This document shows, one piece after another, positions 33,815-38,440 of a stretch of DNA of 47,168 nt. The notes under the pieces were generated by a model. That model was not told where the DNA came from and made no database searches. It saw only the letters and a program-made list of their open reading frames with translations. Origin of the DNA: Bifidobacterium breve (GTDB taxonomy: Bacteria > Actinomycetota > Thermoleophilia > Solirubrobacterales > Solirubrobacteraceae); contig CAMCUD010000031.1 in the NCBI GenBank assembly GCA_945878865.1, positions 1-47,168 on the forward strand, given 5' to 3'. Each line of letters opens with the position of its first letter. The first letter of the stretch is position 1. Made by a program: the position numbers and the translations under genes.

Positions 33815-35509
33815 ATGGTTGCGGCACCGGGCGGGACGGGCACCGGGCCCGTCCTCCTGGCGGGTGATGACGGGCTGTCCGTGCGCGTGCGCGAGGAGCT
33901 CGCCGCGGTGGATGTCCCGTCGGTGACGGTGACGTCGGGGCCGGGCACGCTCGCAGCGCGCACCGCAGAGGCCGCCGGCGCGGAGATCGTCGTGGGCGAC
34001 CCCACGGACCCGCAGACCTGGGAGCGGGCGGGGATCGCCGACGCGCGCGCCGTCGGCCTCCTCGGCCCGTCGGATGTCGGCAACCTCCACGCCGCGCTCC
34101 TCGTCGAGGAGCTGCACCCCGAGGCGACCGTCGTCGTCCGGATGTTCCAGGCCGACCACGACGGCGGGATCGAGGATCTGCTCGGCGACCGCGGCCGGGT
34201 CCTCTCCGACGCGCAGGTCGCTGCGCCGGCGTTCGTCCACGCCGCGCTGTCGGGAAACACCGGCCAGCGGATCACGATCGCCGGGCGGCCGCTGGAGGTC
34301 GCCGAGGTCGACGTCCACCACCCGGCGCTCATGGTCGCGCTCTGCGAGGCCGACACGCCGACCGAGGTCCTGCCTGCGCGCGAGGAGATCAGCGGAAACG
34401 TCCTGGCGCTCATCGACCCGTACGCGGCGAGCAGCGCGCGAGGCATGCTGCCTGTGGCGGTGCAGCAGGCGGCCGAGCAGCGCGCGGCTCGACAGGCTGA
34501 GGCGCGCGCCCGGCGGCGCTCGGCGATCCGCCGCTGGCGTCATCGCTTCGCCCTCGTGCCCAAGCGCGCGTTGTGGCTGCTCGGGGTGATGTTCGTCGTC
34601 ATGCTCGTCAGCGCGACGATCTTCAACTTCGGCACGAGCGTGAAGATCGACGAGCTCGACGCGATCTACTTCACCGTCACGACGATGGCGACCGTCGGCT
34701 ACGGCGACGTCAACCTCATCGGCGAGCCGGACTGGGTGAAGATCTACGACATCGGGCTCATGGCGCTGTCGGCGGTGCTCGTCGGCCTGTTCCTCGCGAC
34801 GCTCACCGAGGCGCTGGTCTCCACGCGCATCGATCAGGCGCTCGGGCGGTTCCCGCGTCCGTCACGCGATCACGTCGTGGTGTGCGGGCTGGGGCAGGCC
34901 GGCACCGAGGTGCTCATCAAGCTTCACGAGGCCGAGGTCCCGTGCGTGGCGATCGAGCGCAGCACCGAGGCGGCCGGCCTGGTCACCGCCCGCGCGCTGG
35001 AGATCCCCGTGATCATCGGCGACGCCCGCAATCCCGGGACGCTGGAGGAGCTCAACCTCGATCGGGCGCAGGCCCTGATGGCGCTGACCACGGACGACCT
35101 GGCGAACATCCAGTGTGCGCTGAAGGCCCGCGAGCTCAACCCGGACCTGCGAGTCGTGCTGCGCTGCTTCGACCAGCAGCTCGCCGAGCGCCTGGACCGC
35201 ACGATCGATCTGGATCTGACCCGGTCCGTCGCCGATCTCGCGGCCCCGCAGTTCGCCGCCGCGCTGCTGGAGCGCGAGCTGGCCGAGACGCTGCCGGTCA
35301 GCAACGTGCCGCTGCGCCTCCTGGAGACCGTCGTCTCGGCGGAGTCGCCGCTGGCGGGCAGCACGGTCGGGGCGGTCGAGCGCGACGGCGGGCTGCGCTT
35401 CCTGCACTGCGACGGGCGCTGGCGCCCGCGGCCGGACTACCCGATCTCGGCGGGCGAGCCGATCGCGGTGGTGGGGACGCGGGAGGCGTGTGACGGCCTG
35501 ATCCGCTAG
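33815..35509 (+). CDS. Two-RCK potassium channel (RCK-TM-pore-TM-RCK)
   Basis: 564-residue channel. An N-terminal TrkA-N-like domain spans about 10-150, but its nucleotide loop is degenerate (LLAGDDGLS in place of GxGxxG). A basic linker leads to TM1 (251-271), the pore helix and filter TVTTMATVGYGD (287-298), and TM2 (310-331). A second RCK domain starts VVCGLGQAGTEV (355-366), with an intact GxGxxG, and ends in a TrkA-C domain. The filter GYG predicts K+ selectivity, and the C-terminal RCK predicts gating by nucleotide or ion. An RCK domain on each side of one pore is unusual, since MthK-type channels have one RCK after the pore. ATG at 33815; the longer upstream frame is antisense to the R2lox gene. 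Convergent with glycyl-tRNA synthetase through a shared CTAG. Confidence 0.9.
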   Translation: MVAAPGGTGTGPVLLAGDDGLSVRVREELAAVDVPSVTVTSGPGTLAARTAEAAGAEIVVGDPTDPQTWERAGIADARAVGLLGPSDVGNLHAALLVEELHPEATVVVRMFQADHDGGIEDLLGDRGRVLSDAQVAAPAFVHAALSGNTGQRITIAGRPLEVAEVDVHHPALMVALCEADTPTEVLPAREEISGNVLALIDPYAASSARGMLPVAVQQAAEQRAARQAEARARRRSAIRRWRHRFALVPKRALWLLGVMFVVMLVSATIFNFGTSVKIDELDAIYFTVTTMATVGYGDVNLIGEPDWVKIYDIGLMALSAVLVGLFLATLTEALVSTRIDQALGRFPRPSRDHVVVCGLGQAGTEVLIKLHEAEVPCVAIERSTEAAGLVTARALEIPVIIGDARNPGTLEELNLDRAQALMALTTDDLANIQCALKARELNPDLRVVLRCFDQQLAERLDRTIDLDLTRSVADLAAPQFAAALLERELAETLPVSNVPLRLLETVVSAESPLAGSTVGAVERDGGLRFLHCDGRWRPRPDYPISAGEPIAVVGTREACDGLIR

Positions 35510-36879
35510 CGCAGTTTCGGCGTCGTCCAGTCCGCCGCGAGCTTCTCCGTCAGCAGCGCCGGCAGCTCGTCGATCGCCACGCGCTCCTGCGCGAGCGAGT
35601 CACGGTCGCGCACGGTCACCGTGCGGTCTTCGAGCGTCTGGTGGTCGACGGTCACGCCCCACGGGGTGCCGATCTCGTCCTGGCGGCGGTAGCGCTTGCC
35701 GATCGAGCCGCCCTCGTCGTACTCGACCTGCATCCGCCCGCGCAGTGACGCGACGATCTCCTTGGCGACCTCGGGCTGCCCGTCCTTCTTGACGAGCGGC
35801 AGGACGGCGACCTTGACCGGCGCGAGACGCGGGTGCAGGCGCAGCACGGTGCGCGTCTCGCCGTCGACCTCCTCCTCGTCGTAGGCGTCGACGAGGAAGG
35901 CGAGGGTCGCGCGGTCCGCCCCGGCGGCCGGCTCGATGACGTGCGGGACGTAGCGCTCGCCCGTCGCCCCGTCGAAGTACTCGAGCTTCTCGCCCGAGTG
36001 CTTGGCGTGCGCGCTGAGATCGAAGTCGCCACGGTTGGCGATGCCCTCGAGCTCGGACCAGCCGATCGGGAAGAGGTACTCGACGTCGGCCGTACCGGAG
36101 CTGTAGTGGCTGAGTTCGTCGGCCTCGTGCTCGCGGAGCATGAGGTGGTCCGGGCGGATGCCGAGCCGGACGTACCAGTCGTAGCGGGCCTGCTTCCAGT
36201 ACTCGTACCACTGCGGCGCGTCGGCGGGCGGGACGAAGAACTCCATCTCCATCTGCTCGAACTCGCGCGTGCGGAAGATGAAGTTGCCCGGCGTGATCTC
36301 GTTGCGGAACGACTTGCCGACCTGCGCGATGCCGAACGGCGGCTTCTTGCGGCTGAACTGCAGGACGTTCTTGAAGTTGATGAAGATGCCCTGGGCCGTC
36401 TCGGGGCGCAGGTAGGCGACCGAGCCGGAGTCCTTCACGGGGCCGACGGTCGTCTCGAACATGAGGTTGAACTCGCGCGACTCGGTGAGGTCGCAGTCCG
36501 GGCCCTGGCCGGCGAGCTTGCTCGGCTTCTTCGGGCAGACGAGGTCGGGCTTGCCCTCGGCGAGGTGGTCGGCGCGAAAGCGCGTCTTGCACGTGCGGCA
36601 GTCGACGAGCGGGTCGGTGAAGCCGGCGAGGTGGCCCGACGCCTCCCACACCTTGGGGTGCTGGAGGATGGCGCTGTCCAGGGCGACGATGTCGTCGCGC
36701 TCCTGGAGCATCGTCTTCCACCACGCGTCCTTGACGTTGGTCTTCAGCAGGACGCCGTAGTGGCCGTAGTCGTAGGTCGATCCGAGCCCGCCGTAGATCT
36801 CCGAGGAGGGGAACACGAAGCCGCGGCGCTTGGCCAGCGCGACGATCTTCTCCATGGTGACGGCGTCGGTCTCGGGCAT
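35506..36879 (-). CDS. glyQS: Glycyl-tRNA synthetase, homodimeric class II
   Basis: 457-residue single-chain enzyme of the eukaryote/actinobacterium type. Class II motifs are visible: GLGSTYDYGHYGVLLK near the N-terminus, motif 2 FRNEITPGNFIFRTREFEQME, and motif 3 in the GADRATLAFLVDAY block. The insertion CRTCKTRFRADH with CPKKP may bind zinc. Charges tRNA-Gly in the cytoplasm. Length is normal. A TAGGCT element seven bases before the ATG indicates a leaderless mRNA; no T-box leader is seen. It is the terminal gene of its strand block, 72 bases downstream of a TetR gene that ends in its own hairpin. Confidence 0.96.
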   Translation of the reverse strand: MPETDAVTMEKIVALAKRRGFVFPSSEIYGGLGSTYDYGHYGVLLKTNVKDAWWKTMLQERDDIVALDSAILQHPKVWEASGHLAGFTDPLVDCRTCKTRFRADHLAEGKPDLVCPKKPSKLAGQGPDCDLTESREFNLMFETTVGPVKDSGSVAYLRPETAQGIFINFKNVLQFSRKKPPFGIAQVGKSFRNEITPGNFIFRTREFEQMEMEFFVPPADAPQWYEYWKQARYDWYVRLGIRPDHLMLREHEADELSHYSSGTADVEYLFPIGWSELEGIANRGDFDLSAHAKHSGEKLEYFDGATGERYVPHVIEPAAGADRATLAFLVDAYDEEEVDGETRTVLRLHPRLAPVKVAVLPLVKKDGQPEVAKEIVASLRGRMQVEYDEGGSIGKRYRRQDEIGTPWGVTVDHQTLEDRTVTVRDRDSLAQERVAIDELPALLTEKLAADWTTPKLR

Positions 36880-36919: not shown

Positions 36920-36952
36920 GCCGAGACCGGTCGAAATCGGACCGTTCTCGGC
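36920..36952 (-). terminator. Hairpin terminator of the TetR gene
   Basis: GCCGAG plus a CCGGTC segment pairs with GACCG plus CTCGGC (about 11-12 pairs with one internal mismatch) at the very end of the leftward TetR gene; the arm includes the last base of its TAG stop. It separates TetR from glyQS. Confidence 0.5.
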
Positions 36953-37431
36953 TACACCCCCGTCAGCCGCGCGATGGCGGCGACGACGGGTGCGGGGTCG
37001 GATCGCCCGCGGACGAGCGCGTCGAGGACGATCCCGTCGATGGCGGCCAGCACCGCGGGCGCGCGGTCCTCGCCGACTGCGGGCGCGAGCTGGGCGACGA
37101 AGCGGTCGCGGGCGGCGACCAGTGGCGCGCGCAGCTCTTCGTCGCGGGCGGCGAGGAGGAAGAGCTCGTATCGCGCGAGGGTGATCGTGCGGCCCGGTCC
37201 GAGCCACAGCGTGATGGCCTCGGGAAGCCCTCCGGCCGGCGCTTCCACCGTGGCAAGGTGGTCGAACAGCGCCCGCAGCAGCCCGCGCTGGCCGCCGAAG
37301 TGATGGCGGATCGAGCCGTGCGGCACGCCCGCGCGGTCCTCGGCCGCCCGCACGGTGAGCGCCTTGCCGCCCTCCGTCCCGAGGATCTCCAGCGCGGCGT
37401 CGAGCAGCCGCTCCTTTGTCGATTTCTCCAC
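36952..37431 (-). CDS. TetR-family regulator paired with a methyltransferase
   Basis: 159-residue regulator with the HTH KERLLDAALEILGTEGGKAL, then AAEDRAGVPHGSIRHHFGGQ, and a compact helical C-terminal domain. I choose GTG at 37431: a TAGTCT -10 element lies seven bases upstream, and the codon falls in the centre of one of two identical operators. An ATG at 37464 would add 11 residues but would overlap the start codon of the divergent gene. The methyltransferase on the other strand is the obvious target, together with the regulator itself. The inducer is unknown; a product or toxin removed by the methyltransferase is a possibility. A hairpin follows the stop. Confidence 0.85.
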   Translation of the reverse strand: MEKSTKERLLDAALEILGTEGGKALTVRAAEDRAGVPHGSIRHHFGGQRGLLRALFDHLATVEAPAGGLPEAITLWLGPGRTITLARYELFLLAARDEELRAPLVAARDRFVAQLAPAVGEDRAPAVLAAIDGIVLDALVRGRSDPAPVVAAIARLTGV

Positions 37432-37439
37432 ACGGAGAA
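37424..37439. promoter_or_regulatory. TetR operator 1 (TTCTCC-N4-GGAGAA)
   Basis: Perfect 6-4-6 inverted repeat TTCTCC-ACAC-GGAGAA. It contains the GTG start of the TetR gene (37429-37431) and touches its -10 element, and it covers the -35 area of the methyltransferase promoter. Identical arms to operator 2, 33 bases away (about three helical turns). Confidence 0.8.
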
Positions 37440-37455
37440 GACTACGTGCTACGTT
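37439..37455. promoter_or_regulatory. Face-to-face leaderless -10 elements
   Basis: TAGTCT on the minus strand (37439-37444) is seven bases from the TetR GTG. TACGTT on the plus strand (37450-37455) is seven bases from the methyltransferase ATG. Both lie between the two operators. Confidence 0.6.
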
Positions 37456-37456
37456 C

Positions 37457-37472
37457 TTCTCCATGTGGAGAA
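37457..37472. promoter_or_regulatory. TetR operator 2 (TTCTCC-N4-GGAGAA)
   Basis: Perfect 6-4-6 inverted repeat TTCTCC-ATGT-GGAGAA that contains the ATG start of the methyltransferase (37463-37465). Mirror arrangement of operator 1, so one dimer on each site would block both promoters. Confidence 0.8.
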
Positions 37473-38089
37473 TTGAGACCGCGCTCGACGACGCCGGCTC
37501 GCCGTACGACCGCCGCGCGGCGGCGTACGACCGGCTCGTCCGCAGCCGCACCTACAACCGCGTGCTGTGGGGCACGCGCCCCGACGACTACGAGGCCTTC
37601 GCCGCCGCGGCGATCGCCGAGGACGACGGGCCGCTGCTCGACGTCGGTGCAGGCAGCGCGGCCGCGACCGCGCCGCTGCACGCCGCCTCGGGCCGTCCCA
37701 CGACGCTCGTCGACACCTCGACGGCGATGCTCGAGCGCGCCGCCGAGCGCATCGGCGATGACGCGGCGCACGTGCGCTACCTCCAGGCCGATGCGCTCGC
37801 GCTGCCCCTCGACGGCGGCTTCACCACCGTGATGTGCATGGGCTGCCTGCACCTGTTCGAGGAGCCGGGGCTCCTGCTCGACGCCCTGCTTGCGCAGGTG
37901 GGGCCGGGCGGCATGGTGCACGTCACGGCGCTCGTCGCCGAGACGGCGATCGGCCGGCGGTATCTCGGGGTGCTGCATCGCGCCGGTGAGGTGGCGACGC
38001 CCCGAAGCGCGACGGAGATGGCGGAGGCGCTCGGCGGCGTCGAGCTGGACGTACGCGGGAGCATGGCCTACGCGTCCATCCGACATTGA
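37463..38089 (+). CDS. SAM-dependent methyltransferase (class I, small)
   Basis: 208-residue class I methyltransferase. Motif I is LLDVGAGSAAATAPL, followed by the acidic strand TTLVDTSTAMLERA, the adenine-contact region YLQADALALPLDGGFTTVM and a GPGGMVHVTAL strand. It resembles UbiE/Methyltransf_11-type enzymes that act on small molecules. The ATG lies in operator 2 directly after a TACGTT element, so the mRNA is leaderless. Divergent from the TetR gene and probably its only partner. The acceptor is unknown. The segment HLFEEPGLLLDALLAQVGPG is typical of the family and rules out a DNA or rRNA methylase. Confidence 0.85.
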   Translation: MWRIETALDDAGSPYDRRAAAYDRLVRSRTYNRVLWGTRPDDYEAFAAAAIAEDDGPLLDVGAGSAAATAPLHAASGRPTTLVDTSTAMLERAAERIGDDAAHVRYLQADALALPLDGGFTTVMCMGCLHLFEEPGLLLDALLAQVGPGGMVHVTALVAETAIGRRYLGVLHRAGEVATPRSATEMAEALGGVELDVRGSMAYASIRH

Positions 38090-38094
38090 GTCGT

Positions 38095-38121
38095 TTGGCA
38101 CTCCTATACTGCGAGTGCCAT
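38095..38121. promoter_or_regulatory. CIRCE-like HrcA operator overlapping a leaderless promoter
   Basis: TTGGCACTC-N9-GAGTGCCAT matches the HrcA operator TTAGCACTC-N9-GAGTGCTAA at 15 of 18 arm positions and has perfect 7-bp inverted arms. The nine-base spacer holds TATACT (38105-38110), the best -10 element of the window, nine bases before the ATG at 38120. A repressor here would cover the -10, the transcription start and the start codon. Confidence 0.75.
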
Positions 38122-38440
38122 GCCGTTCTACGAGTATCGACGCCCGGACGGAACCACGTTCGAGGTCATGCAGAAGATGAGCGACGACCCGCTGACGAAG
38201 GACCCCGAGACGGGCGTCCCCGTCGAACGAGTCCTCAGCGCGCCCGCGATCCACTTCAAGGGCAAGGGCTTCTACAACACCGATTACGGGACGAAGCGGC
38301 GCAACCGCGAGAAGGCGGCCAAGAGCGACGGCGCCTCCTCGTCAGGTGACGCTTCCTCGAGCGCCAGCGGCTCGACCAGCGACAGCTCGTCGTCGTCCTC
38401 GGGCGACGCCAAGGGCTCGTCGTCCAGCAGCGACTCCTAG
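38120..38440 (+). CDS. FmdB/Ruc-family small protein without the zinc-ribbon cysteines
   Basis: 106-residue protein. The N-terminal half aligns with the FmdB family: MPFYEYR, TFEVMQKMSDDPL, VERVLSAPAIHFKGKGFYNT and DYG. Family members have CxxC and CPxC knuckles; here the places read RRPDG and DPETG, and the protein has no cysteine at all. The last 40 residues are a disordered serine-rich tail with a basic patch before it. The M. tuberculosis member Rv0991c (Ruc) is an oxidation-activated chaperone co-regulated with hsp60 and hsp70. The CIRCE-like element at its start supports heat-shock control here too, but redox switching through cysteines is impossible, so it may be constitutively active or changed in role. 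Convergent with the 2TM-SHOCT gene, one base between stops. Confidence 0.82.
   Translation: MPFYEYRRPDGTTFEVMQKMSDDPLTKDPETGVPVERVLSAPAIHFKGKGFYNTDYGTKRRNREKAAKSDGASSSGDASSSASGSTSDSSSSSSGDAKGSSSSSDS

What the first reader, a model, noticed from the sequence alone, without database searches (positions are those of the whole stretch)
38095..38440. Cysteine-free FmdB/Ruc-type protein under a CIRCE-like heat-shock operator
Seen: TTGGCACTC-N9-GAGTGCCAT, 15 of 18 arm positions as in the HrcA operator, with TATACT in the spacer and the ATG in the second arm. The gene encodes an FmdB-family protein in which every zinc-ribbon cysteine is lost. Known: the M. tuberculosis homologue Rv0991c (Ruc) is a chaperone switched on by cysteine oxidation and co-regulated with hsp60/hsp70. 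Inference: a lineage of Ruc-like chaperones that kept heat-shock control but dropped the redox switch, leaving the serine-rich tail as the active or client-binding part.
Basis: partly seen in the sequence, partly recalled or inferred. Interest (0 to 1): 0.78.

Follow-up and report, generated by a model that had tools for sequence, protein, structure and literature searches.

The report
Heat-shock chaperone relative without redox switch
A small relative of a known oxidation-activated bacterial chaperone sits under the standard heat-shock repressor site, but across a whole bacterial family it has lost every zinc-binding cysteine that works as the redox switch, which makes it a natural test of how much that switch matters.

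Summary
The CIRCE operator (38095-38121) is real: about 0.03 matches are expected by chance, and it is the genome's best site. TATACT fills its spacer and the ATG lies in its second arm. The 106-aa FmdB-family protein has no cysteine.
Comparison with other genomes extends it. The compound CIRCE/-10/ATG element occurs in 26 of 399 class genomes, always at this gene. It precedes cysteine loss: 14 carriers in a sister family have a Cys3-His site, and all 12 in the window's family have none. At the ligand positions 33/33 cysteine-free proteins share R8, T/S12, D28 and T/S31, and the N-domain is under purifying selection. The replacement is therefore specific, not decay. Balneolaceae, another phylum, show a near-identical replacement and keep only C28.
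Best reading: an HrcA-repressed, metal-free, redox-insensitive Ruc-type holdase. Published Ruc Cys-to-Ser mutants are active without oxidation. Heat induction and chaperone activity are untested. New variant of a known kind.

The parts
38095..38121 (+). CIRCE / HrcA operator (TTGGCACTC-N9-GAGTGCCAT)
   Evidence: same core before groES in this genome; conserved at the same place in relatives
38105..38110 (+). TATACT, -10-like promoter element inside the operator spacer; predicted start of transcription 0-5 nt before the ATG (leaderless mRNA, inferred)
   Evidence: TATAMT in the spacer in 9 of 9 loci of this class and at this distance from the start codon also where CIRCE lies further upstream or is lost
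38120..38440 (+). cysteine-free FmdB/Ruc-family protein, 106 aa
   Evidence: dN/dS of codons 1-64 about 0.035-0.19 within its genus
38120..38239 (+). N-terminal ribbon domain (residues 1-40); the Cys/His ligands of relatives are replaced by R8, T12, D28, T31
   Evidence: AlphaFold2 pLDDT 91-93 for residues 1-40
38246..38293 (+). motif following the ribbon, AIHFKGKGFYNTDYGT, shared with cysteine-bearing relatives (K47, G48, G50, T54, D55 invariant in 53 sequences)
38312..38437 (+). Ser-rich low-confidence tail (residues 65-106; 52% Ser), variable in composition among relatives
37355..38089 (+). upstream class I methyltransferase-like gene, ends 5 bp before the operator; neighbour, not part of the system
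35506..36879 (-). glycyl-tRNA synthetase gene, the conserved syntenic neighbour in most relatives; shows orthology of the locus

Best explanation
The gene is the HrcA-repressed Ruc/FmdB gene of this bacterium. HrcA bound to the CIRCE covers the -10 element and the start of a leaderless message, so the gene should be silent until heat or misfolded protein inactivates HrcA, together with groESL. Step shown: operator, hrcA, groES sites and their conservation (sequence only). The protein is a Ruc-type holdase whose zinc site was exchanged in steps: Cys4, then Cys3-His, then none (R8/T12/D28/T31). It keeps a metal-free ribbon, cannot be switched by thiol oxidation, and is therefore controlled by its amount (transcription) rather than by redox. 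Steps inferred: folding without zinc, chaperone activity without oxidation, client hand-over to DnaK.
For: CIRCE at 0.03 expected per window, and the genome's best site. hrcA present with dnaJ next to it. Two CIRCE sites before groES-groEL. The pattern GGCACTC-N-TATANT-NN-GAGTGCC occurs in 26 of 399 genomes of the class, zero in the reversed-pattern control, and 26 of 26 are at the fmdB start codon. hrcA found in 57 of 58 non-Balneolaceae genomes checked by locus handle, mostly Thermoleophilia. Ligand table: C8, H12, C28 and C31 in 20/20 of the three-Cys set; R8, D28, P29, G32 in 33/33 cysteine-free proteins. Low dN/dS. AF2 gives the ribbon at pLDDT above 90 without Cys and the same in a four-Cys relative. 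Literature: HrcA represses ruc, groES, groEL1 and groEL2 in M. tuberculosis; zinc-free C-to-S Ruc variants are active without oxidation (PMC7448276).
Against: No expression or binding data. In the published work, loss of zinc switched Ruc on, but this protein has replacements that seem to keep the domain folded, so it may not be permanently on. AF2 had cysteine-bearing sequences in its alignment, so the fold is not independent evidence. Half of the cysteine-free relatives have lost the operator, so repression is dispensable for them. The tail that Ruc needs for activity differs widely in composition here.
Confidence: 0.55

Rival explanations
1. The metal-free ribbon is a lock that replaces zinc: R8, D28 and the T12/T31 pair hold the domain closed, as zinc does in reduced Ruc, and heat rather than oxidation opens it. 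The protein is then a heat-gated holdase under a heat-gated promoter.
For: 33/33 identity at R8, D28, P29 and G32 and near identity at T12/T31, with low dN/dS, show that the altered knuckles are maintained; a domain that only had to be unlocked would drift. Ribbon predicted with high confidence.
Against: No test of stability or thermal opening; side-chain contacts in the model could not be checked here; AF2 may copy the fold from relatives.
Confidence: 0.22
2. The N-domain has a binding role of its own (for example DnaK or RNA polymerase/sigma contact) and the protein is not a holdase; cysteine loss shows that the redox switch was never the function selected in this lineage.
For: The most conserved part is the ribbon plus KGKGFYNTDYG, shared with cysteine-bearing relatives. 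Weak fold matches to the RbpA core domain (Z 2.9, 1.8 A over 38 residues). Ruc captures DnaK even without stress (PMC7448276).
Against: Fold matches are weak and common for ribbons; co-regulation with groESL favours proteostasis.
Confidence: 0.15
3. The gene is a decaying Ruc copy that has lost function along with its cysteines.
For: All metal ligands are gone; many relatives have lost the operator.
Against: dN/dS of 0 to about 0.19; fixed, specific replacements; retained promoter; a gene of this kind in every genome of the set.
Confidence: 0.04
4. The palindrome is not an HrcA site in this organism but a chance inverted repeat or a site for another regulator.
For: Arms differ from the classical consensus at three positions; one arm end coincides with coding sequence.
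Against: 0.03 expected; same GGCACTC/GAGTGCC core before groES; conserved at this gene across the class; hrcA present.
Confidence: 0.04

Closest known systems
Ruc (Rv0991c), redox-regulated chaperone of M. tuberculosis (PMC7448276)
   Same: FmdB/TIGR02605-type N-terminal domain, hydrophilic disordered tail, HrcA operator upstream, regulon shared with groESL
   Different: No cysteine and so no zinc switch; TATA-type promoter within the operator in place of a SigH promoter; activity not measured
FmdB-family zinc-ribbon proteins (TIGR02605 CxxC_CxxC_SSSS; Pfam PF09723 Zn_ribbon_8)
   Same: Scores above both curated cut-offs; begins at the initiator Met; Ser-rich tail
   Different: Both CxxC motifs absent; ligand positions carry R, T, D, T
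HrcA/CIRCE heat-shock operon control
   Same: Inverted repeat with N9 spacer, hrcA in the genome, sites before groES
   Different: The -10 hexamer lies in the spacer and the ATG in the right arm; in other relatives the operator lies about 27 nt further upstream
Hsp33 (HslO)
   Same: Zinc-site, oxidation-activated holdase used as analogy for Ruc
   Different: Unrelated fold; absent from all 37 non-Balneolaceae genomes checked, so it does not take over the redox role
Balneolaceae FmdB proteins
   Same: Same replacements R8, DG(T/S), P-x-T-G
   Different: Keep C28; no hrcA in the two genomes checked; one of these two was tested for Hsp33 and has it

Membership tests
FmdB family (TIGR02605 / PF09723) | profile score above curated cut-off | tested here: met
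FmdB family (TIGR02605 / PF09723) | two CxxC motifs of a zinc ribbon | tested here: not met
   zero Cys in 106 aa
Ruc redox-regulated chaperones | zinc-coordinating, oxidisable cysteines | tested here: not met
   so it is a Ruc homologue, not a redox-regulated chaperone
Ruc redox-regulated chaperones | disordered hydrophilic C-terminal tail | tested here: met
   pLDDT 50-60 beyond residue 60, Ser-rich
Ruc redox-regulated chaperones | HrcA operator shared with groESL | tested here: met
   by sequence
Ruc redox-regulated chaperones | prevents protein aggregation and feeds DnaK | not testable with these tools
   needs purified protein
HrcA/CIRCE regulon | 9-9-9 inverted repeat near promoter, above chance | tested here: met
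HrcA/CIRCE regulon | hrcA in the genome and the same sites before groES | tested here: met
HrcA/CIRCE regulon | HrcA binding and heat induction | not testable with these tools
   needs gel shift and transcript measurement
RbpA-type RNA polymerase-binding proteins | RbpA core fold | tested here: inconclusive
   Z 2.9 over 38 residues, no Foldseek match with E below 0.001

The most novel reading that the evidence does not exclude
Ruc-type chaperones have lost their metal and redox switch in at least two phyla, along a readable path (Cys4 to Cys3-His to a metal-free R/T/D/T knuckle), turning an oxidation-gated holdase into one controlled by transcription or temperature alone, with the operator fused to the -10 element and start codon.
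Probability: 0.4. Interest if true: 0.7.

Novelty: new variant of a known kind. Interest (0 to 1): 0.55.

Why it matters
Ruc is known mainly from one 2020 study, and the switch model rests on Cys-to-Ser mutants of one protein. A family of bacteria that lost all ligands while keeping the gene, its promoter and often its heat-shock operator is a natural long-term version of that mutant. It offers a direct test of whether zinc release or the altered N-domain makes the chaperone active, with Cys4, Cys3-His and metal-free orthologues at hand. The similar loss in another phylum suggests that redox gating is an add-on to a more basic function. The compound operator/-10/ATG element, found in 26 genomes, is also a clean example of an operator relocated over a promoter.

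Tried and rejected
Second, Cys-bearing FmdB in this genome as holder of the heat-shock role: none over cut-off; the best sub-threshold hit is an FHA-like protein with a zinc ribbon. Cys-bearing paralogues in other genomes belong to other FmdB subfamilies without the HFKG motif and without CIRCE. Compensation by Hsp33: absent from all 37 genomes other than the Balneolaceae one. Strict single loss: the HrcA+GlyS tree nests two three-Cys genomes (L047, L049) among the Cys-free ones and an AU test rejects one clade (p 0.015), but not when either is left out (p 0.43, 0.38). The group codes separate the two states by family, so tree error or gene replacement is as likely as parallel loss. GlyS as outgroup marker failed, as the outgroup genomes lack this type. 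No solved relative by sequence. A -35 hexamer at good spacing was not found in the window. Side-chain contacts of R8 and D28 could not be read, as model coordinates are not given. A paper search for RbpA zinc ligands as a precedent gave nothing usable.

Full report
Observation. The sequence at 38095-38121 is TTGGCACTC-CTATACTGC-GAGTGCCAT. Dinucleotide shuffles of the window give 0.03 matches of this quality, and in the whole 4.96-Mb genome no other place lies within three mismatches of the classical consensus. TATACT is at 38105-38110 and the ATG starts at 38120 within the right arm. The ORF 38120-38440 encodes 106 residues without cysteine and passes the curated cut-offs of TIGR02605 and Pfam Zn_ribbon_8.

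hrcA is present with a dnaJ-like frame next to it. With the local form of the operator, two further clean sites appear, both CTGGCACTC-N9-GAGTGCCAG, 79 bp apart, before groES-groEL. So the groEL sites share the core GGCACTC-N9-GAGTGCC. A weaker fourth match on contig 37 lies near an acyltransferase-like frame and is within what the reversed control gives. No second FmdB protein passes the cut-off in this genome. Heat induction cannot be tested here.

Relatives and synteny. Eighty loci from other genomes show that the gene stands next to a divergent glyS in most members of the order, so these are orthologues at one locus. In the window a TetR-like and a methyltransferase-like gene sit between glyS and fmdB; a similar gap separates the two genes in its nearest relatives L019 and L039.

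Cysteine loss. Of the proteins read, deep relatives have four ligand cysteines (CxxC ... CxxC). A second group of 20 has C8, H12, C28 and C31 in 20 of 20; C11 is deleted and a histidine is fixed at the same knuckle, which suggests a Cys3-His zinc site (inferred). In 33 cysteine-free proteins (two of them with one Cys at a non-ligand position) the four positions are R8 (33/33), T or S12 (33/33), D28 (33/33) and T or S31 (33/33), with P29 and G32 also invariant. Codons 1-64 show dN/dS between 0 and about 0.19. This is a specific exchange under selection, not decay.

History. A tree of HrcA plus GlyS puts the cysteine-free genomes together except that two three-Cys genomes (L047, L049) fall among them. 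The AU test rejects a strict single clade (p 0.015), but not when either exception is left out. A tree of the short gene itself, ligand columns left out, needs only two changes between the states, but is poorly resolved. In an independent sample of 399 class genomes, carriers of the compound operator follow the family code: 12 of 12 in the window's family are cysteine-free and 14 of 14 in family f3 are Cys3-His. One main loss with one or two gene replacements or tree errors is the simplest reading; parallel loss is not excluded. Outside the phylum, 24 of 24 Balneolaceae proteins read have R8, DG(T/S) and P-x-T-G and keep only C28. This is convergence or old transfer, not resolved here.

Operator anatomy. 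A -10-like hexamer sits about 10-16 nt before the start codon in nearly all orthologues, with or without an operator, so the message is probably leaderless (inferred). The CIRCE has two main places. In nine loci it lies at -25, with TATAMT filling its spacer and the start codon in or next to its right arm. In fifteen it lies at -50 to -71, upstream of the same -10, over the -35 region in several. In the first place the pattern GGCACTC-N-TATANT-NN-GAGTGCC is almost a name tag: 26 of 399 genomes, one site each, none in the reversed control, and all 26 at the fmdB start. Since it occurs with Cys3-His and with cysteine-free proteins, this control came before the loss. In all, 17 of 33 cysteine-free genes keep a CIRCE and 16 have lost it. 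In the small-genome group L008-L018 the -10 remains while the arms are gone, and most of those genomes still have one CIRCE elsewhere.

Function. In M. tuberculosis HrcA represses groES, groEL1, groEL2 and ruc. Ruc is inactive with zinc bound and active when oxidised, and zinc-free C8S/C11S and C29S/C32S variants are active while reduced. The disordered tail is required (PMC7448276). The natural cysteine-free proteins are the evolutionary counterpart of those mutants, with a difference: their ligand positions carry fixed replacements, and AF2 builds the ribbon at pLDDT above 90 much as in a four-Cys relative, although the alignments mixed both kinds. So the N-domain is probably folded without metal. 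Whether that makes the protein always active, or closed until heated, is the main open point. Hsp33 was not found in the 37 genomes of this set outside Balneolaceae, so no Hsp33-type redox holdase replaces it.

What is shown and what is inferred. Shown by computation: operator, hrcA, groES sites, single FmdB gene, cysteine loss across a family, specific replacements, purifying selection, operator older than the loss. Inferred: HrcA binding, heat induction, leaderless start, Cys3-His zinc, metal-free fold, holdase activity. Another hint of a thiol function in cysteine-bearing FmdB proteins is a predicted selenoprotein form with CxxU (PMC2398784).

Noticed in passing
L168-L192 (Balneolaceae genomes): 24 of 24 FmdB proteins read have lost three of four ligands with the same R8 / DG(T/S) / P-x-T-G pattern, keeping C28; a second phylum with the loss.
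   Followed up: partly
L020, L023, L026 (Patulibacter and relatives): Tandem duplicate cysteine-free fmdB genes behind one CIRCE; the first has a Ser-rich tail, the second a charged K/R/E/A-rich tail.
   Followed up: partly
L008, L009, L011-L015, L018 upstream of fmdB: CIRCE arms eroded while CTATACTTC with the -10 remains in place; the operator is lost in this small-genome group although hrcA and, in most, another CIRCE remain.
   Followed up: partly
L106 (G000:C27) 1195-1300: Two CIRCE sites 79 bp apart before groES, with a TTGACG...TATCGT promoter-like pair between them.
   Followed up: no
window 36952-38089: A divergent TetR-like / methyltransferase-like gene pair stands between glyS and fmdB; in most relatives glyS and fmdB are direct neighbours.
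   Followed up: no
L009, L013, L015: Public records titled Bifidobacterium breve (MAGs) whose HrcA and GlyS group with the Solirubrobacterales; the organism names look wrong.
   Followed up: no
37 genomes: Hsp33 absent throughout, including genomes whose Ruc homologue has no cysteine.
   Followed up: yes
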